64,000 nucleotides of DNA. It comes from Isoetes taiwanensis. Lineage: Eukaryota; Streptophyta; Lycopodiopsida; Isoetales; Isoetaceae. The translations under genes and the position numbers were made by a program. The notes below the pieces were generated by a model, which searched no databases, had not been told where the DNA came from, and worked only from the letters and a program-made list of their open reading frames with translations. Shown here in pieces: positions 2,192 to 39,299 of this stretch. Position 1 is the stretch's first letter, and each line of letters starts with the position of its first letter. The stretch spans positions 1,703,487 to 1,767,486 of the forward strand of contig JAJEKV010000049.1 in NCBI GenBank assembly GCA_021234155.1, given 5' to 3'.

Positions 2192-3617
2192 CTTCATCCA
2201 CACAAGTCTTTTATGAATTTTAGCAATCTGTCAAAGTTATAATGCTCAACTGTAAGATTTACAGAAGAAACTCATGAGTGTAATTCAAACATAAATAGAT
2301 GGTGTTGATGATGTTCGAAAAGAAAATCAGTAGTTACAAATTGATGTTGAGGGTCTTAAAATTCAACATGTTATGCATCTGAGTCATGCAAGAATTTGCT
2401 GCTATCCAAGGCCAACTCCAGTATGACATTGCAAGGTATCCACATGGCCCTTACAAATGAATTCTATCACCTCACGGCTTCTGACAAAGAGAAAGCCCAG
2501 TAGTTATTGTTTGCCCAAGTTGAGATCAAGTCTCTTAAGGATCAACTCGGTGTTTATGCACATACTCACACCATGCATCAAAAGCATATAGCTCATTTAG
2601 AGGCTTCTCAGATTGGAGCTCATTAGACTGAGATTAAGGCATATATATATTTGAGACACTGATAACATCGGCCCAACTGTAGGGGTCGGAGGTGTGGGGG
2701 GCAGGTCTACAAGATGGCAAATGGAAGAAACAGGAAAGCATATTTCTTCAGTGGCACTGCCAAGAATTCAAGGTTCGCACAAATACACCTTCAGCCATCA
2801 CAATATATGAGACATGGGAGAAACCCATGGAAATCAAGGTTTGGAAAAAGAACAATCAGATACCTCATAAAGGACAATGGGAACATGAACCCAGACAAAC
2901 TATCGACTATAGCCATCTGGGCATCGGCCAAACAACACCTACTCATAGGCCAAAAGCATAGTGGACAAGGAAAATGGGGCTTAGTCCGAGCCATAACTTT
3001 AAGCGAAGCAAAATGGAATGAGGATTGGACACAACAAGCAATGTAGACATGGCTAGACAAATGAACAGAAGAGAAATCACAATGACTGTTGGACACGTTC
3101 AACGGCGAACATCATATGGTCAAGGAATGCACATAGATACCAAACTAGGGAAAACAAGAAGAGACACTCGACACAGTTTATGATGGGAAGCCATGATCTG
3201 AAAATTGAAAAGAAAAGATGGAGGGAAGAAGGCAAACAAGACCATATATATAAACTCCATGACACCGGAAAGGTAGAGGTCGAATGTCAAAAGGTCAGAT
3301 AGAACTACCTAATTCCAATGATCATGATCCAAGACAACCAGCTGATGGAACTGGCAGATGCCATCGGGGAGATGACATTGAGACACCGGGTGTGCACTAA
3401 GAAAGAGGACTCATAAGACACATCTAGATGTGGATCAATGAGCCCCAATGTACGACTCAAAATTGAAGATATCGATGTTCATTCACATAACCACGAAGCC
3501 AAGTAGTAGTAGTGTACACGTACTTAAAGGAACAAGCTAAGCCCCCCAGATGGCTACATTAAATCACAGCATTGTGTGGCGGAAGTGACCCCTTGGGAGA
3601 GCCCGCCAATGCTACAC
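2192..3617. other. Unassigned region with short open frames
   Basis: No gene is recognised. Overlapping frames at 2692-2961 and 2714-3046 (+) and a weak open stretch around 3320-3510 (+) look partly coding, but they match nothing I know and are separated by stops. The area lies between the Gypsy remnant and a TATTC-tailed sequence at 3618, so it may be the body of an old retroelement. That is inference only. Confidence 0.3.
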
Positions 3618-3690: not shown

Positions 3691-4503
3691 CTTCCACTGC
3701 CCATTCATTCATTAGCTCGAGCCCTGCAAGAACTTACTCTGCAACAATATCAACTCAACTTTGTTTCTTGTGCTAATACATTCGATTATTTGCAGCAATA
3801 GAAGATCACCTTATAAAGATGCTGGTTCATATACATGATCAAATTTGAAGAGTTTTTATTTTGCTGAACAACATACTTCTATCTCATTCTTGGCCACTGT
3901 ACTCTAAAAAATGATTTTCTACTTCTCATGAATCACGAAGAAACTAAACATGACCTTAAACTTGAACTGTATACATACAGTGAATGCACAATTACTAAAG
4001 TTCTTTTAGAAGCTTCTGCTTTTGCAAGGAGAGTAGCATATGACCAGTAATACAATGTTAAAACATAAGTTTTCTATCATATATCAACAAATTTATTGAG
4101 TTGAATTGAATTGATTTTTATCATCTGGGAAGACAAGCATTGATTTATTGAAAAAAGGCTTGTTTGGTCCGTTATAAATATCAAAAAGTAGGATCTTCCA
4201 AGCTAATCGTTCTCGCACACACTTTGGTGATGTTTCTTGGATGGCACGATGACATCTCGCCTCAACACCAAAATTGAACATTACACATTATACATATCGC
4301 ACATGGACAGATTTTTGCCTCTTGCAAGTAACGTGGAGAGATCCAAACAAAATTTTCATGGATTTTAAAAGTATTGAACGGGAGAATGTGACCGCAATCA
4401 AGAAGCGTAGGAATATAACATAAGATTTATAGATGTTGTGGTGTGTATTCGTATAGAAATACGTACCTTGCTGATGCTGGACATGGGGATTCGAAATAGA
4501 AGG
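3691..4503. other. Non-coding stretch
   Basis: AT-rich sequence with no convincing gene, RNA or repeat. The open frame at 4093-4281 (-) is short and without recognisable features. Confidence 0.4.
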
Positions 4504-5192
4504 GGTATTTCTGTATTAGAAGGTTTAGGGATGCTGGTTTGGCATGGGCAGATGGCTTGCATTCGGTTTGTTTCCATTCCTACAAGCTGGAGGTGTCGGG
4601 CAACTCGAATTCCTACCTTGAAGGGTCGGCTAAGCTTGATTGCTTGCATGGGAAGCAAGACAAGGATTTGGTCCTTGGTTCTGCTATTCGAACTGCACTG
4701 AAGTAACTCATCGTGAATATGTTTATGAAGAGGGCTGCAAGGAAGGCCAAGGGGGCCGTTGGTCCTGTGCCCTTTGCGCCCTTGTCTTCTGCTATGTCTG
4801 TTTAAATGGATGACTCTTGTGGTGAGCTGAATTTGGAGATCGATTAGGGGGCAATTGATGTATCTGTCACTCTTGGTCTCTCAGGCTAGGATATGCCTCG
4901 TAGTTTCTTTGATGCTTTGTCCTCTTTCTGTGATAAGGGATGTCTTGTTGGGATTGTTCTTGAGAGAGGTGCCTCTAACCATCTTCACTGTCGGGTAGTC
5001 TTGAGAGCACAGTATAAGTCACCTAAGGCTTTGAATGAGGCCACTAAAAGAGACTTCAATTGGCATTCTAAACCTCCTAGTGTTGTATTGAGGTGTAAAG
5101 CTTTGAAAAATAATCAATTTCACTGTTTCGAAGGGGTAGTGAGATACTGCATGAAAGATATGGGGAAGGTTCATTATTCTTGCCACCTTCAT
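4504..5192 (+). pseudogene. Rep-like HUH element, copy A, 5' half
   Basis: First part of a Rep-type (HUH, single-tyrosine) replication transposase gene homologous to copy B at 36302-37237. A start-like ATG at 4719 leads into RAARKAKG, shared in part with copy B. The frame has stops at 4803, 4845 and 4887 and is then open to 5192. HLH at 4980-4988 fits the HUH metal-binding motif, and YCMK with its tyrosine at 5145 fits the nicking motif, the pair found in CRESS-type Rep proteins and Replitrons. The frame stops exactly where a TIR transposon begins and resumes at 15776. The stretch around 4504-4550 partly matches the left end of copy B. Assignment to Replitrons is inference from family knowledge. 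Confidence 0.65.
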
Positions 5193-15743: not shown

Positions 15744-15772
15744 GGCCATTTTGAGACCCCAAATCTGCCCTA
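15744..15772 (-). repeat. Right terminal inverted repeat
   Basis: Reverse complement matches 5193-5221 with one mismatch. It is followed by ATG and then CAT, where the Rep frame of copy A resumes. Confidence 0.8.
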
Positions 15773-15775
15773 ATG

Positions 15776-16640
15776 CATAATATTTCTAAATCTATTATCG
15801 AGAAAGATAAGGACTTGTACTTGAGGTGGGGTGCAGGTGATACTAAAGGGCTTGTTGTGCTGGATAACAGAAATTTACTGAACAAGGCTGCTCACTTTGT
15901 ATTTTACCATGGGAATCAAAGGCTTACTGCAAGTTTAACTTATACATTGTGCAGAATGATCAAATCTAGGAAGTATACACTATCAAGGAATGGGCCAGGG
16001 CATAGATGTTACTGGGATGATTCTATTCCTTGTGTGAAAAGGACGTGAACTTCGAAGATAGCTGAGACCCTTCCTTTAGCCCTGATGTTGTTATTCTAGA
16101 GCCTGGCGTGGATTACATTCCAATCCACACGGGTGATAACATATTGGTTGTGTGGATTGACCTTATATAGTTTTAATTCACCTGTACACTTTGTAATCCG
16201 CTTTGTGAGTTTCGGTTTTGTTCTTGTTTTGGGTAGTTCCTATTGGTAACTTCCTGTTACAGGGTTGTGATGGAGAGCAATAGAGGGAGATGTACAAGGT
16301 CTTGCCCTTTAGTCTTGAGCTTGGAACATTCACTTCTAAGCTTCAGATTTAAGCGTCCCACTCTGATCCACATGCTTACCCTGGTGAATCTGAGGAAGTA
16401 TTTTGTGTTGAAGAGTTTGTTGCTAATGTGATACAGATTGGAACACTTGCCCATAGGATAGTTGCATCTCTTCGAATATTGACAGCTTACTCGTTTCTTT
16501 GATGCTATAGATTACGCAATGTATAGCGTGGGGGGGAATAGCTGGGCTGGGAGTGCCAATTTCTGAACTATATACCTTGAGATCCCACACTAGCCTTGCC
16601 AAAGCTCCGTTGGTACAAGAAATCTGATAGGTTGGCGATG
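15776..16640 (+). pseudogene. Rep-like HUH element, copy A, 3' half
   Basis: The frame resumes mid-protein with HNISKSIIEKDKDLYLRWG, matching HNVSEAAIEKGKDLYLRWG of copy B, then LLNKAAHF and RRYWDD-like blocks to about 16050. Relative to copy B it lacks about 45 residues after FTLS (the segment with INEHRVRAAWR), so it is internally deleted. Frameshifts follow; 16085-16135 still reads DVVILEPGVDYIPIHTGD, as in copy B. After an intron-like gap ending TTACAG at 16262, the second domain is recognisable at about 16400-16480 (FVANVIQIG.LAHRIVASLR) and 16545-16625 (LGVPISELYTLRS). Several stops make it non-functional. Confidence 0.65.
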
Positions 16641-16824
16641 TCATTTGGCACGCCCAGTCTGGACCGCCCATGAATTACTGTGTGCTATTATTTTTGGTGC
16701 TTGTACAGGCACATGGACACTTTTCTGTTATGTTGATGTGAATAAACCAATTTATGATTTCTATCCATTTACACTGTATGCTTATGATTGCGTTATCCTA
16801 TTCATATTAACACATCTGAAATTT

Positions 16825-16935
16825 TAGTGGGCTACGACCCCTGGGTATATGGGCAATCCCTTGTGTTAGGATTTCTCCTATGCCCGAATGAGCATGGGCA
16901 TTGTACTGGTGTTCAAATCTCCAGGCTCACTGATG
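16825..16935 (+). repeat. Degenerate three-hairpin tail of copy A
   Basis: Aligns with 38115-38220 of copy B: TTAGTGGGCTACGACCCCTG corresponds to TTAGCGGGCTTCGGCCGCTG, and CTGGTGTTCAAATCTCCAGG to CTGGGGTTCGACTCCCCGGG. The central long stem has decayed more than the other two. Confidence 0.5.
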
Positions 16936-17344
16936 ACGCTCATTTGTTTTCACTTGCAAAACATAGATCATGGTAATTGGGCTCTTGCAATTGAACCTTC
17001 AAGAGCCTTTTGAGTCATTGCCACCATCCGGGAGTATAGAGCTGGAGCTCTCAGGAAGATATGGAGTTAAAGCTTTCAGTCCTCTGAGGTCGCTGAGAGC
17101 ATGAGTGTTCTATGACATCAAACTCAGCGCTCTCAGGGACATAAGAGGCATCTTTGCGCGAGCACTTCAGGTAAGTGGAGAGCATTGGACTCCAATCGGG
17201 ATTCAATTCCCCAAGCTTCCTTGATCTTGGAAAGTTTGGTTTGCTATAGTGTATGTCTGATGTGTTGCATGCGTGTTGGGAGAGGGTAACCATCCGATTG
17301 GGGCTTTTTAAATGCCACTTACAAAACGGGTCAACATGGGGTTG
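16936..17344. other. Copy A 3' region without recognised gene
   Basis: No coding signal. It separates the hairpin region from the conserved 19 bp end motif of the Rep elements. Confidence 0.4.
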
Positions 17345-17383
17345 TTTGACCCCATCTTGACTTGTTTGACCCCATCTTGACTT
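17345..17383 (+). repeat. Duplicated 19-bp Rep-element end motif
   Basis: TTTGACCCCATCTTGACTT occurs twice in tandem, one base apart. One identical copy lies at 38409-38427 beyond copy B. It probably marks the 3' boundary of these elements. It ends 199 bp before the start codon of the gene at 17582. Confidence 0.6.
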
Positions 17384-17581
17384 GGAACGGACGCCCACAT
17401 GAATCGTTGGGGAATATTCTGCAGAATGTCATCAGTCCACAGAAAATCAAAACACACGCCCTACCCAAGAAAGCTCAGGTCCTTGAACCACTAGAATGCA
17501 AAAAAGAAAAAAAGAAAAAAGAGAAAAAGAAAAAATTGCGCTTTTAAATAAGATGCAAGAAAATGGACGCCTGCATTATCC
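17384..17581 (+). promoter_or_regulatory. Putative promoter and 5' UTR of the plastid-protein gene
   Basis: A purine-rich A/G tract at 17500-17536 is followed by TTTTAAATAAG (about 17541), which could serve as a weak TATA-like element about 35-40 bp before the ATG. The close upstream neighbour is the Rep-element end motif at 17345-17383, so element sequence may form part of the promoter. No transcription start evidence is available. Confidence 0.3.
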
Positions 17582-34847: not shown

Positions 34848-35236
34848 GGTCCTTTGCTGGTCATTTCTTTTTTGCAGACAATGTGTCTAAAGCTGTCAAG
34901 CTTTTTGGATAATAAACTTCAGTTCTAGCTTTTGGAATTACACTGGATAAAGCATACTTCATGAATTTTCTATTTTACTACTAAGGTAAAAGCTGGAAAA
35001 TACTTTTGCAAATATAATTTACAATCTAGAACAACTGAACATCACGATTATCAATTTGCAGATGCAATGCAGGTCCTTTGCTGCTTACTTCTTTTTTGCA
35101 GACAATGTGTCTAAAGCTGTCAAGTTTTCTGAATAATACCATGTACCTTCAGTTCTAGCTTTGGACTGGATAAAGCATACTTCATGAATTCTCTATTTTA
35201 TTACTAAGTTACGTTCTTACAAAAGCTGGAAAATAC
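34848..35236 (+). repeat. ~224 bp period direct duplication
   Basis: Copies at 34848-35003 and 35072-35236 share TTGCAGACAATGTGTCTAAA, GCATACTTCATGAATT and AAAGCTGGAAAATAC. Each includes a splice-acceptor-like TTTTTTGCAG. Non-coding or a relict intron-exon region. Confidence 0.7.
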
Positions 35237-35948
35237 AATCCGAACATCATAGAAGTAAGGCCGGCTCCAGAAACAAGATCAGAGAAGCAAGGTCGGCTCT
35301 AGAAGCAAGATCAGAACACAAAACCTGAAAAAAAAATCTTATTAACTTAGTTTTTTAGCACCATCTGACCAGCTCAGTTCTGTACTCATCTTTCCAATCC
35401 GAGAATGAGATGGATGCCAAAGGAGACGGTGGAGAAAGCTGAGCTCAAAATTCGTATAGAATGAAGCCATCCCAATTTTTTGCTCTAGATTTTCTCATTC
35501 AATACTTGCGGGCCATTCAAATTTGCATTTAGTTCCGTCAACTGGGATCCCGTAGGGGGAACTTTGATCTGCCCGAGAGGGGAGGGGGGGTGGGGGAGGG
35601 GGATTACATGCGGCATTCCCTGGCATACATACTAAAGCCCTCCTAAAATAAAAAAGAAGATGTGATACTTTGGAAAGTCAACAATGTATTCATTTAATTT
35701 TTTAAGGTTAAAAAGACCACATAAATTGTAGATCCACATCAGCGGGCAAACGTTGTGTTTGATGGCTCGGATGTAGATCTTGGCACACATGCCACAGAAT
35801 ATGATATGATTCAAAAGCTGAAATACACCGAGAAAGGACTAATTTTTAGTCCATAACTCCAAATTGGTTTTTATTTTTCCACAAACAATCTAGAGGAGGC
35901 ATTTTGTGTTGTTGTTTTGTGTGTGATTATGTGGGCAAAGTTGGAAAG
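35237..35948. other. Spacer before Rep element B
   Basis: Contains a short internal repeat (AAGTAAGGCCGGCTCCAGAA and AAGCAAGGTCGGCTCTAGAA) and a G-rich run at 35576-35602. No gene seen. Confidence 0.4.
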
Positions 35949-35988
35949 GGTATTTTTATAACCTAAGGTTTGGAATGGTTAGTATTGG
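35949..35988 (+). repeat. Left direct repeat of Rep element B
   Basis: GGTATTTTTATAACCTAAGG followed by TTTGGAATGGTTAGTATTGG. It pairs with 38346-38383 in direct orientation, and weakly with about 4504-4550 at the start of copy A. Confidence 0.6.
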
Positions 35989-36301
35989 TATTCGTATGCA
36001 AAGAGGATAGGAGATGACGGTGGCACTGTGGATTCCAAACTTTGGAATCTAGAACATGCATCTGTTGCTCGGTTGGCCAGAACTGGTAGTCCTCACGTGG
36101 TCTGTTCCATAGATGGCGGAAACAGCAATGGCGGCGCCAGGTATGTGTCTTGGCTGTGAGCTTCTTTCTGTTTTGGGGCATGTAAGATAAGGAGGGGTCG
36201 TGTTGGTTGTTCCGGAGCGCATCTGCAGTCTTGTGCTAGGGGATTTTTGTTAGAGGTAAGATGGGTCTGTTGCTCTTGTTTTGTTTATAATGTCTTTGTA
36301 G

Positions 36302-37237
36302 AGAGCAACGAGGAAAGGGAAGGGTGTTGCTTGTTCTGTGCCTTCTTCTCTGAGTTGTTTAAACATCGGGTCTTCTGATTCTGGAAAGCCTGAGACTGGG
36401 GGACATGCTGGTTGTTCTCTTGGGTAGGATTGGAGTGCTATAGACGTGAATGTGACCTTGGGTTTGTCTGGGCAAGATGTGCCCATGAGTTTTTATGATG
36501 CTCTTGTGGGGTTTTGCAATCGAAGGTGTTTGGCTGGGGCTGTGGCCATGGAGCGTGGTGCGAGTGTTGATCACTTGCATTGCTAGGCTGTTTTTAGAGC
36601 CCGGTTCAAGAGTCCCAGGGCCATGAATGATGCCATAAAAAGAGATTTCAATTGGGTTTCAAAGCCACTTGGTGTGATATTGGTATGCAAAGCCCTTACG
36701 AACACTCGCCTTCATTGTTTTGAAGGCATGATTGGGTATTGTATGAAGGATGTTGGAAAAGTTCATTATGTTTGCCATCTCCATAATGTGAGTGAGGCTG
36801 CTATTGAGAAAGGAAAAGACTTGTATTTGAGATGGGGAGTTGGTGACATGAAAAATTTAGTTGTGCTTCATAATAAAAACCTCTTGAATCGAGCTGCACA
36901 TTTTGTGAATTACCATGGGAACCGTAGATTGACTGCTAGTTTGATGTATACATTGGCCAGGATGATTCGATCTGAAAAATTTACCTTGTCTAGTTCCTGG
37001 ATTATCCCTTCAAACACGGCCCATATCAATGAGCACCGTGTCCGGGCTGCGTGGAGAGTGTTGCTCAATCCTAGTCACTGCATGCCGTCGGATATGAGGA
37101 CCATTCTATTTGGCTTGCCAGCAGGTTTTGTATCTGTGGAAAGGAATGGGCCTGGGCGGAGGCGGTATTGGGATGATGTTATCCCTGCTGATGAGGAAGA
37201 CAATAACTTTGAGGACATTCATGATCCTTCTTATATA
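36302..37237 (+). pseudogene. Rep-like HUH/Y1 transposase, copy B
   Basis: The frame runs from RATRKGKG after an acceptor-like TTTGTAG to YI-stop at 37237, about 312 codons with two internal stops (one directly after the HUH motif at 36584-36586). HLH at 36572-36580 fits the HUH motif. The tyrosine codon at 36737 in YCMKDVGK fits the Rep nicking motif with its conserved Lys. C-terminal conserved blocks are KGKDLYLRWG, NYHGNRRLTASLMYTL and PGRRRYWDDVIP. After 37237 the protein continues in another frame (PDVLILEPGVDYIPVHKGDR to 37300), so a frameshift is present. Copy A shares all these blocks except one internal deletion. Relation to CRESS Rep/Replitron proteins is judged from motifs only. 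Confidence 0.7.
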
Positions 37238-37337
37238 TAGTGCAGATATTCCTGATGTCCTGATACTTGAGCCTGGGGTAGATTACATCCCTGTGCACAA
37301 GGGTGATCGTACCATGGTTGTTGGCTGATGAACTTGC

Positions 37338-37817
37338 TTGGGTGTTGGTTGTACAGTGGAGTTTCTTTGTTTTCATGCTTTTGTTTGTTTTATAGTTGCA
37401 AGAGTTATGGAGACTGATCCAGAACCAGTTGTTGGCATGGAGCAGCATGTTGTGTCCTTGCCTGAATCTTTCATTTCATCTGCCGTAGAGGCATCCCATC
37501 TCGACCCTGTTGTGTTTTCAGCTGAACCAGAGGCAGCATTCTCCGCTCAGGAGTTTGCGAATAATGTTATTCAGGTTGGGACTGAGGCGCATAGGATTGC
37601 GGCATCACTGCGCTTGCTTAGCCGGCTGCTTAGAGCGTTCTATGTGTCCATTGACAGTGCTATATCTGTTGTGGAGTGGGAGCATTTGGGTGTGCCTGTT
37701 TCTGAATTGCACATATTACGTTCTCTTATGAGCCTTGCAAGGGCATTACTTGTGCAGGAAATACGGCAATTAGATACGGTCATAAGGCATGCACATAGTG
37801 GCTCGGCTATGAACTGA
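37338..37817 (+). CDS. Second domain of the Rep element, copy B
   Basis: An open frame from which METDPEPVVGMEQHVV (ATG at 37407) to SGSAMN-stop is shared with copy A. An intron-like pyrimidine-rich stretch ending TTTTATAG lies just before it (about 37396), so it is probably the last exon of the Rep gene. The helical segment FANNVIQVGTEAHRIAASLR and the segment LGVPVSELHILRSLMSLARA are conserved in copy A at 16400-16625. The helical, Leu-rich character suits an oligomerisation domain, which has been proposed for Replitron proteins; that role is inference. The frame itself is uninterrupted. Confidence 0.55.
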   Translation: MGVGCTVEFLCFHAFVCFIVARVMETDPEPVVGMEQHVVSLPESFISSAVEASHLDPVVFSAEPEAAFSAQEFANNVIQVGTEAHRIAASLRLLSRLLRAFYVSIDSAISVVEWEHLGVPVSELHILRSLMSLARALLVQEIRQLDTVIRHAHSGSAMN

Positions 37818-38114
37818 TTTATTTCTATATTTATATTTTGTTAGTTTGTGATTCCTATATGAAGTTCATGAACCTTGATCTAGATTTGTATTGTAGTGCT
37901 TGCAAGAGCACCTTGGTGTTGGGAAGCTCAACTTCGTTCACCTGGTTGAGTGTCCTTCAACATTGTAAAGTTTCTTTTGAGTTATTAATGTCTAGGTATG
38001 GTTTGCTGGTTATGGGAAATGCTTCTGAATTTGGTTAAGGGCAATTGTGTTATGGGCTGGATTGTTATTGATATTTCATTGTGTAAAGTAATGGGGCTAA
38101 CTTGTTTGCTATGT
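37818..38114. other. 3' UTR of Rep element B
   Basis: Non-coding sequence between the second domain and the hairpin tail. Confidence 0.4.
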
Positions 38115-38220
38115 TAGCGGGCTTCGGCCGCTGGGCATACCAGACATCCCTCTTGTGGGATGCCTGGTATGCTTGGAAGAGCATGGGAATTTCTACTGGG
38201 GTTCGACTCCCCGGGTTCAT
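38115..38220 (+). repeat. Three-hairpin, tRNA-like tail of Rep element B
   Basis: Three consecutive stem-loops. The first is AGCGGGCTTCGGCCGCT (TTCG loop). The second is GCATACCAGACATCCC paired with GGGATGCCTGGTATGC at 38135-38172 (15 of 16 pairs, 6-base loop). The third is GGGGTTCGACTCCCC at 38198-38212, which matches a tRNA T-arm and the Pol III B box (GGTTCGANTCC). The order and outer hairpins are conserved in copy A at 16825-16935. No full tRNA fold is evident. It may be a Rep recognition structure or a tRNA-derived segment. Confidence 0.6.
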
Positions 38221-38345
38221 TGTAATTTATGTGGTGGTTGGTGATTCAATCATTTGCGAATGAAGTTATTGTTGTGGGATTAATCATTGGGCAAATCTTG
38301 AAATGGTATTTTTTTTATTTTTTTTTTATTGAAGGCGTAAGAAAT

Positions 38346-38383
38346 GGTATTTTATAAGGTGAGGTTTTGAATGGTTAATATTG
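38346..38383 (+). repeat. Right direct repeat of Rep element B
   Basis: Direct repeat of 35949-35988. The 19-base TTTGACCCCATCTTGACTT follows at 38409-38427, identical to the tandem pair beyond copy A. Confidence 0.6.
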
Positions 38384-38427
38384 TGAGGGCTAGGTCAAAC
38401 AGAAGGGATTTGACCCCATCTTGACTT

Positions 38428-39299
38428 CAATTAGAGGGCTGCAATTTGATGACCTGGAATATGCCATGCAATGTGCTTGCATCCAATGGTTCCAAAAAAA
38501 ATTAATAATGATAATACACCCCAAATGTACAAACTATGTGTTTGAAATCTATGTATGCAAGAGGTCGATGTCACGTAAATATTGTTTTTGGAAATATGAT
38601 GGTTTTCTGAGGCCAATGGTTGTTTATGTTCAATGTGCACCATTGTGATTTGCGTGGGGTCGTGTGGAAAAAAATTGTGATCCTTCATTTGGCACAATGC
38701 AAGGAATATTCGTCCCATCCATGGCCTAAAAACAAAGTTGAAAACATCCCATAGGGCTCGTTAGCATTTAATGGAGGTCTCAAATTGGGTGAAATATGCT
38801 CCCTTCTCTCCATCGATGTCCATGGATTTCAATACCGAGATGCTTACCGAGATGCTGACACGTTGAATCGATCAAAGAGTTTTTTACTGCTTCAGGTTCT
38901 CCGTTCATCATAAATGCCAGGCACTAGGCACAACATCCCGAACAAACACCTACAGAAGGAAAATAATCCAAGTTCAAATCCAAGCCAGTTTTTTTTCCCA
39001 AATCTGGAAGATATGCCGGAAAATGAAGACTTGAGTACCTGATTATAATTGAGAGCCTCTTCGTTTGGGTCCAAAGCTGCAATTGTTCCCACAGGTTTGG
39101 CTTAGTTCTGCATCAAGAAGAACAGGAGCTAAATTGAAATAGCTTTGTAGATGAAATATTAGGGCCAATGCACGAATCCTGTAAAGCCAATGCACGAATC
39201 CTCGTGTTTCCTGTAAGCATATAACACTCTTTTTCAAGAGTCTATAAAGGTCGAATCACAATTTCAAATAGGCTTCATAAAATCCAGAAAGTTAAAGTG
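38428..39299. other. Spacer, no recognised gene
   Basis: Small frames on both strands (38421-38648, 38431-38718 minus, 38892-39092 minus) show no motif. Confidence 0.4.

What the first reader, a model, noticed from the sequence alone, without database searches (positions are those of the whole stretch)
35949..38427. Replitron-like Rep transposon with direct-repeat ends
Seen: a reading frame with an HLH (HUH) motif and a YCMK tyrosine motif, a second helical domain after a likely intron, flanking ~40 bp direct repeats, no TIRs and no helicase. Known: Replitrons are eukaryotic Y1-HUH transposons with short terminal direct repeats, common in non-seed plants. Inference: this is a Replitron-type element and the direct repeats are its ends.
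Basis: partly seen in the sequence, partly recalled or inferred. Interest (0 to 1): 0.85.

Follow-up and report, generated by a model that had tools for sequence, protein, structure and literature searches.

The report
Replitron with tRNA-like right-end module
This is a decayed copy of a Replitron, a known kind of plant jumping gene, but its real right end lies beyond the repeat first taken for it, and near that end its family carries a conserved folded module that looks like part of a transfer RNA, whose job is unknown.

Summary
The element is a Replitron: the Rep frames match Pfam Replitron_HUH, and at least 150 such domains are scored in this 1.66-Gb genome. The copy is dead (TAG at 36584-36586 just after HLH). 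Related copies and an empty site put its ends at 35926/35927 and about 38525. The left direct repeat is the left end; the right one is subterminal, with about 140 bp and a (CACCCCAAATGATAATA)n tail beyond it (18 of 20 further copies have that segment). Four insertions with empty sites show no target duplication over 2 bp. No report found in the papers searched: a 116-nt module (38106-38221) with a UUCG hairpin, a covarying long hairpin and an acceptor/T-arm-like minihelix. It is a conservation island shared by three diverged families, one of them a second Replitron in this window, and was not detected in 15 loci of other clades. A non-autonomous family that captured polyphenol-oxidase sequence spread without it, so it is probably not needed in cis; I favour an RNA-level role, not shown. 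New variant of a known kind.

The parts
35927..38525 (+). whole element, a decayed clade-A Replitron of about 2.6 kb (base 35926 'A' may be element or target)
   Evidence: Family copies, right ends, empty-site relatives L047-L050
35926..35987 (+). left terminus ATTATGTGGGC... = left direct repeat
   Evidence: boundary; alignment to the right repeat
36290..37325 (+). Rep coding region, decayed (tblastn matches 36290-37213 and 37257-37325 to the open frame of L034)
36452..36826 (+). HUH endonuclease domain; HLH 36572-36580, stop TAG 36584-36586, catalytic-type tyrosine 36737-36739
   Evidence: Pfam PF21859 at G000:C1055:1739938-1740312, 73.1 bits, 1 TAG
37407..37817 (+). second coding exon or ORF2, helical domain conserved in clades A, B and E
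   Evidence: blastp of the frame 37332-37814: 8.8e-76 (L034), 6.8e-50 (L036), 7.0e-7 (L041); single-sequence AlphaFold helices, mean pLDDT 64
38106..38221 (+). 116-nt structured right-end module
38119..38130 (+). module hairpin 1 (GGGC-TTCG-GCCC in most copies; outermost pair broken in this copy)
38131..38176 (+). module hairpin 2, 18-20 bp, compensatory changes
38177..38220 (+). acceptor/T-arm-like minihelix; T-like loop TTCGACT at 38202-38208
   Evidence: Rfam tmRNA model positions 348-362 at 38198-38212, 12.8 bits against gathering 47, E 0.0057
38288..38383 (+). right, subterminal copy of the left-end repeat, with an insert at about 38314-38340
38384..38525 (+). right terminal segment ending in the (CACCCCAAATGATAATA)n tail
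4385..5192 (+). second Replitron of the window, left part (left end and HUH half)
15764..17430 (+). second Replitron, right part: Rep C-part, ORF2 relics, module at 16816-16931 (85.4 bits, not used to build the model), weak second T-arm-like site 17134-17221 (16.8 bits)
   Evidence: outer end approximate, read from the sequence

Best explanation
Shown: a dead copy of a Replitron, a Rep (HUH, single tyrosine, no helicase) transposon. Its left terminus is sharp (ATTATGTGG...). Its right terminus is a short tandem tail, and a copy of the left-end repeat lies about 140 bp inside it. The insertions examined leave no target duplication over 2 bp, and at the right junction the target looks like the tail for a few bases. 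Clades A and B carry a conserved structured module between ORF2 and the right repeat, with a tRNA-like acceptor/T-arm minihelix. Inferred: Rep nicks the left end and moves a single-stranded copy by rolling-circle-like copy-and-paste; strand transfer at the right end is guided by short homology between tail and target. The module acts in the element's RNA (3' region of the Rep/ORF2 transcript), most likely for 3'-end formation, stability or processing by tRNA-handling enzymes, rather than as a DNA end needed in cis.
For: Pfam. Boundaries. Empty sites for 4 insertions (L006 from its own flank; window copy; L002 and L012; junction table). Module: model R1 scores 84 bits or more in 12 of 19 clade A/B HUH loci (L033 and L036 of these were in the model, 10 were not); a 13th, L039, keeps only the T-arm half; the other six show no match to 3' non-coding part, module or end in the DNA fetched. 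0 of 15 loci of other clades. Hit outside the model in window element 2, 85.4 bits. Conservation island: module z 10.4-12.6 against -0.5 to 2.6 for the 120 bp on either side. Covariation on 15 family-level sequences: 92.7% of cells paired, score 0.152 against 0.090 shuffled (0 of 500 reach it), slid structures at most 48.9% paired. Plus-strand RNA is hinted by an invariant U-G pair (15 of 15) and G-U intermediates in hairpin 2. RNA rather than cis-DNA role: the polyphenol-oxidase family has Replitron left and right ends (both fetched for three copies) and no module; L097 also lacks it.
Against: No transcript data; the module may never be in an mRNA. A-C mismatches on the plus strand also occur (22 against 32 G-T cells, 15 of those 32 being the one invariant pair), so the RNA-over-DNA hint is weak. 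Weaker covariation controls: pairs changed on both sides are reached by 47 of 500 shuffles on alignment A1 and 9 of 500 on A2, further pair types by 89 and 51 of 500, and related sequences can beat shuffles without structure. The acceptor helix shows no pair changed on both sides, so it rests on conservation. Two of the 12 first-fetched loci (L006, L008) have lost parts of hairpin 2, L005 ends inside the module, and L065 has lost most of the T-arm. The polyphenol-oxidase family could be mobilised by another Replitron with other needs, and L097 may have lost the module after insertion. The microhomology rests on 4 insertions read mostly by eye; paralogous empty sites are 74-91% identical; the script accepts L012 only if one extra A in the tail is allowed, and L002 is the least clear.
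Confidence: 0.5

Rival explanations
1. The module is a DNA structure: single-strand hairpins near the right end that Rep reads as origin or terminator, like the 3' hairpin of Helitrons. The T-arm look is a by-product.
For: It sits near the right end next to the repeat of the left terminus. Hairpin 2 also scores on the minus strand. HUH transposons commonly use end hairpins (established knowledge).
Against: The polyphenol-oxidase family and L097 have the terminal 140-160 bp without the module. A TTCRANY-type loop is not expected for a generic hairpin: 38 of 40 modules fit it from the second loop base on.
Confidence: 0.3
2. The module is a Pol III promoter or TFIIIC site (B box GGTTCRANNCC) that drives a small RNA or recruits TFIIIC.
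For: Exact B box in 34 of 40 modules.
Against: None of 40 modules has an exact A box (TRGYNNARNNG) in the part scanned (best 1 mismatch in 8, 2 in 32), and TTTT follows within 40 nt in only 6 of 40.
Confidence: 0.12
3. The module is a fossil tRNA or SINE fragment captured once, without function.
For: T-arm similarity; ARAGORN finds no complete tRNA in the window.
Against: Nearly the same length and the same order in three diverged families, conserved far above the flanks, with compensatory changes in hairpin 2.
Confidence: 0.05
4. The direct repeats are the two ends and everything outside is flank.
For: L008 lacks the right terminal segment just after the repeat.
Against: The terminal segment is present in 18 of 20 further copies, and the empty sites of the window copy, L002 and L012 lie beyond it.
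Confidence: 0.03

Closest known systems
Replitrons (Craig 2023, PNAS 120:e2301424120, not held, recalled only; review PMC10741241, passages seen)
   Same: Replitron_HUH domain, single tyrosine, no helicase, no TIR, 2.6 kb, many copies in one genome
   Different: About 60-nt subterminal right repeat of the left end instead of the 5-11 bp terminal repeats named in the review; variable tandem right tail; no TSD over 2 bp seen in 4 insertions; tRNA-like module; a derivative family with captured gene sequence
Helitrons (passage in PMC10741241, and recalled)
   Same: No TIR, no clear TSD, insertion at A^T-like sites, hairpin near the right end, gene capture
   Different: No helicase, another Rep family; 5'-TC / CTRR-3' ends (recalled) not seen
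CRESS-DNA virus Reps (recalled)
   Same: HUH Rep
   Different: No SF3 helicase found; transposon with defined ends
tRNA top half (acceptor plus T arm), mascRNA-like tRNA mimics (recalled)
   Same: 12-base continuous 3' strand, 7-nt TTCRANY-type loop
   Different: No D or anticodon arm; 12-13-nt bulge instead; long hairpin in front

Membership tests
Replitron | Replitron-type HUH endonuclease domain | tested here: met
   PF21859 on window frames, (73.1 bits whole domain); open frames of three relatives 73.9-79.2 bits against cut-off 28.5
Replitron | HUH motif and single catalytic-type tyrosine | tested here: met
   HLH 36572-36580, Y 36737-36739; relatives keep HLH and the YC-KD tyrosine, nearly all of those printed
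Replitron | Replitron C-terminal domain (PF21860) | tested here: inconclusive
   15.0 bits, E 0.033, cut-off 27; L034 14.6 and L036 16.4 bits
Replitron | No helicase domain | tested here: met
   Pfam on the three window frames and on relatives: none
Replitron | No terminal inverted repeats | tested here: met
Replitron | Short terminal direct repeats, 5-11 bp (per review) | tested here: inconclusive
   Longest exact direct match between the outermost 25 and 41 nt is 4 nt; but the right terminus is a variable tail, and a longer subterminal repeat exists
Replitron | TSD of 2-8 bp (per review) | tested here: inconclusive
   3 of 4 insertions compatible with a 2-bp duplication or with none; L002 with at most 1 bp (read)
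Replitron | Length 0.9-4 kb (per review) | tested here: met
   2599 bp
Replitron | Host is a green alga or non-seed plant (per review) | tested here: inconclusive
   Organism not given; dynein heavy chains present (16 matches), which fits a plant with flagellated sperm
Helitron | Rep fused to Pif1-type helicase | tested here: not met
tRNA gene | Complete cloverleaf | tested here: not met
   ARAGORN 0 genes in the window; Rfam only a tmRNA T-arm fragment below gathering
tRNA-derived SINE | A box and B box at the head of a Pol III unit | tested here: not met
   B box 34 of 40, exact A box 0 of 40

The most novel reading that the evidence does not exclude
A lineage of Rep transposons carries an RNA mimic of the tRNA acceptor/T-arm behind a covarying hairpin; RNase P/Z or another tRNA-handling factor acts on it to form or protect the 3' end of the Rep mRNA. 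As far as I know this would be the first tRNA-like element in a eukaryotic Rep transposon.
Probability: 0.27. Interest if true: 0.75.

Novelty: new variant of a known kind. Interest (0 to 1): 0.5.

Why it matters
Replitrons were described only recently and how their ends work is little known. This family gives insertions with empty sites, right junctions that seem homology-guided, a natural deletion (gene-capturing derivatives that keep the ends but not the module) and a structured module that makes a specific prediction: tRNA enzymes or TFIIIC act on a Rep transposon. It also points to gene capture by a helicase-free Rep element.

Tried and rejected
Structure prediction of the HUH half (read through its stop, single sequence) failed, mean pLDDT 38; ORF2 gave a helical model of middling confidence (mean 64), not searched further. 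A PDB sequence search of the second Rep frame gave only chance-level hits (best E 0.93). The Rfam matches are below gathering thresholds; the hairpin between the two T-arms of L036 matches miRNA models only as a long hairpin. Pol III promoter: tested and disfavoured. A resemblance of TTAGTATT in the repeat to the circovirus nonanucleotide (recalled) was dropped because the boundary is not there. The joined flank of L011 found mainly its repeated left flank, no clear empty site. The minisatellite-like tail means that no single last base can be named.

Counting notes. In one search the loop strings were cut one base late, so the script's own count reads 0 of 40; the printed strings give 38 of 40 with TCRANY (the other two TTGACT) after an unprinted base, which is T in the loop columns of alignments A1 and A2. 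Those 40 modules include near-duplicates (L013/L014) and not L065, whose T-arm is deleted. Model R1 was built from 30 modules that a pattern found, out of 31 printed plus L033 and L036; L004, L006 and L008 were left out by that pattern (a variant base, hairpin deletions) and L005 before it (truncated), which favours the structure; L001 is the window itself. Alignment A2 holds all 8 new full hits, L034, L046, L036, both window modules and two more clade-A copies; L033 and L039 were left out. Of 63 exact hits of a clade-B core pattern, 5 were fetched and all 5 match the right part of L036, L102 only from position 3349 on. The HUH tree separates A+B from the other clades with support 1.000 but does not resolve A against B. 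One search was not used for the left boundary because its query starts at 35926. Copy numbers are lower bounds because only 40 or 150 candidates are scored per genome search.

Full report
What was checked. The two half frames match Pfam Replitron_HUH (26.1 bits, E 1.2e-5, just under the cut-off of 28.5; and 36.5 bits, E 7.4e-9). In the genome scan the whole domain at this locus scores 73.1 bits with one TAG, and all 150 scored candidates (of 2165 in the first look) pass the cut-off, against 0 of 14 control genomes. Open frames of three relatives score 73.9-79.2 bits. The C-terminal Replitron model matches only weakly (15.0 bits, cut-off 27). No helicase and no terminal inverted repeats were found. 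The second domain is conserved in clade A (L034, 8.8e-76), clade B (L036, 6.8e-50) and, distantly, clade E (L041, 7.0e-7).

Ends. The left boundary: with a query that starts at 35900, 27 of the 39 other copies scored begin at 35922-35926, 11 further in and 1 at 35903 (second pieces counted). In an alignment of 10 other copies the flanks differ up to ATTATG, apart from L003 and L004, which share a flank by segmental duplication. The right repeat is not the end. Of the 11 other first-fetched loci, 5 align on to 38500-38507, and most printed right ends run about 140 bp beyond the repeat to a tail of CACCCCAAATGATAATA units. Among 20 further module-bearing copies, 18 have the terminal segment. L008 lacks it. 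The window copy sits in a repeat whose uninterrupted relatives (L047-L050) read, in L048, TGTGTGTAAATGATGTACAAAC, against TGTGTGTG|ATTATG...CACCCCAAATGTACAAAC here, so the element spans 35926/35927 to about 38525.

Insertion. Four insertions have empty sites: the window copy, L006 from a tandem copy of its own flank, L012 and L002. None shows a target duplication longer than 2 bp; three are compatible with AT or with none, L002 with at most one base. By eye, the bases after the last CACCCC follow both the tail unit (AAATGATAA) and the target for 3-5 bases in each. A script that allows one mismatch bears this out for the window copy, L002 and L006, and for L012 only if one extra A in the tail is allowed. 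I read this as strand transfer guided by short homology; it rests on four cases and on paralogous sites 74-91% identical.

The module. Between ORF2 and the right repeat lies a block of 116 nt (38106-38221). In 30 copies (29 distinct) 94.0% of the cells of the proposed structure pair, against 91.5% in shuffles and at most 47.5% when slid; pairs changed on both sides (5) are reached by 47 of 500 shuffles. On 15 family-level sequences it is 92.7%, with 7 pairs changed on both sides (9 of 500 shuffles reach that) and covariation 0.152 against 0.090 (0 of 500), slid at most 48.9%. The changes on both sides are in hairpin 2 (6 pairs) and the T stem (1 pair); the acceptor helix is conserved rather than covarying. 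Between the window element, L036 and the second Replitron of the window, the module aligns with z 10.4-12.6, the 120 bp on each side with -0.5 to 2.6. The loop of the last arm fits TCRANY from its second base on in 38 of 40 modules and the B box GGTTCRANNCC is exact in 34 of 40. Rfam places 38198-38212 on the T-arm end of the tmRNA model at E 0.0057, 12.8 bits, far below gathering.

Distribution. Of 34 HUH loci chosen (14, 20), 19 belong to clades A and B by sequence. Twelve carry the module at 84 bits or more; two of these, L033 and L036, had been used in the model. L039 has only its T-arm half, and six show no match to the 3' non-coding part, module or end in the DNA fetched. L065 has the hairpins but has lost most of the T-arm. 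None of the 15 loci of other clades scores. I looked for the module outside Replitrons in a limited way: 5 of 63 exact hits of a clade-B core were fetched and all 5 match the right part of L036.

A natural deletion test. Six loci that match only the terminal 38369-38525 (L085-L090) turned out to belong to a non-autonomous family of about 1.25 kb. For three of them the left end was fetched (L091-L093): that of L092 is 70% identical over 137 nt to the left end in the window. Between the ends is polyphenol-oxidase sequence, tested on L086 (PPO1_DWL E 4.6e-12; Tyrosinase E 2.4e-4, just under its cut-off), to which the other five align. Seven places, the query included, match 72% or more of it at 86-100%, one of them without the right end; five more match 50-57% of it at 68-75%. 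None of L085-L093 has the module, and L097 is an element-type copy without it, though it may have lost it after insertion. So both ends, not the module, seem enough for spread. This is why I place the module's work at the RNA level, at even odds at best.

Literature. Only passages on Replitrons in a review could be read (PMC10741241). The founding paper is not held and what I say of it is recalled. Searches for 'Replitron' and 'replitrons' gave three papers (of the other two I saw the listing only), and 'HUH endonuclease' with 'transposon' and 'tRNA-like' gave one review on wheat CRISPR (listing only). None of what I saw reports a tRNA-like structure in these elements; subscription journals are mostly not in that library, so this is weak evidence of novelty.

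Noticed in passing
window 4385-5192 and 15764-17430: A second Replitron, nearest clade B, split by an insert of about 10.6 kb whose ends read as an inverted repeat (AGGGCGGATTTGGGGTCTCAAAATGGCC, 27 of 28 by eye); it carries its own module at 16816-16931.
   Followed up: partly
L085-L093: Non-autonomous Replitrons of about 1.25 kb carrying captured polyphenol-oxidase sequence, with close copies and more diverged ones.
   Followed up: partly
L033, L036, L055 and window about 17134-17221: Clade-B-type elements have a second T-arm-like minihelix about 195 nt after the first (less clear in the window copy), with a long hairpin between them in L036.
   Followed up: no
L003, L004, L010-L012: Some clade-A copies have extra DNA of about 50-200 bp at 38024/38025, partly made of repeated element pieces, with a left-end fragment in L003 and L004.
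   Followed up: no
window 34848-35211: Duplicate blocks of 67 and 47 nt (91-94%) about 224 bp apart, left of the element.
   Followed up: no
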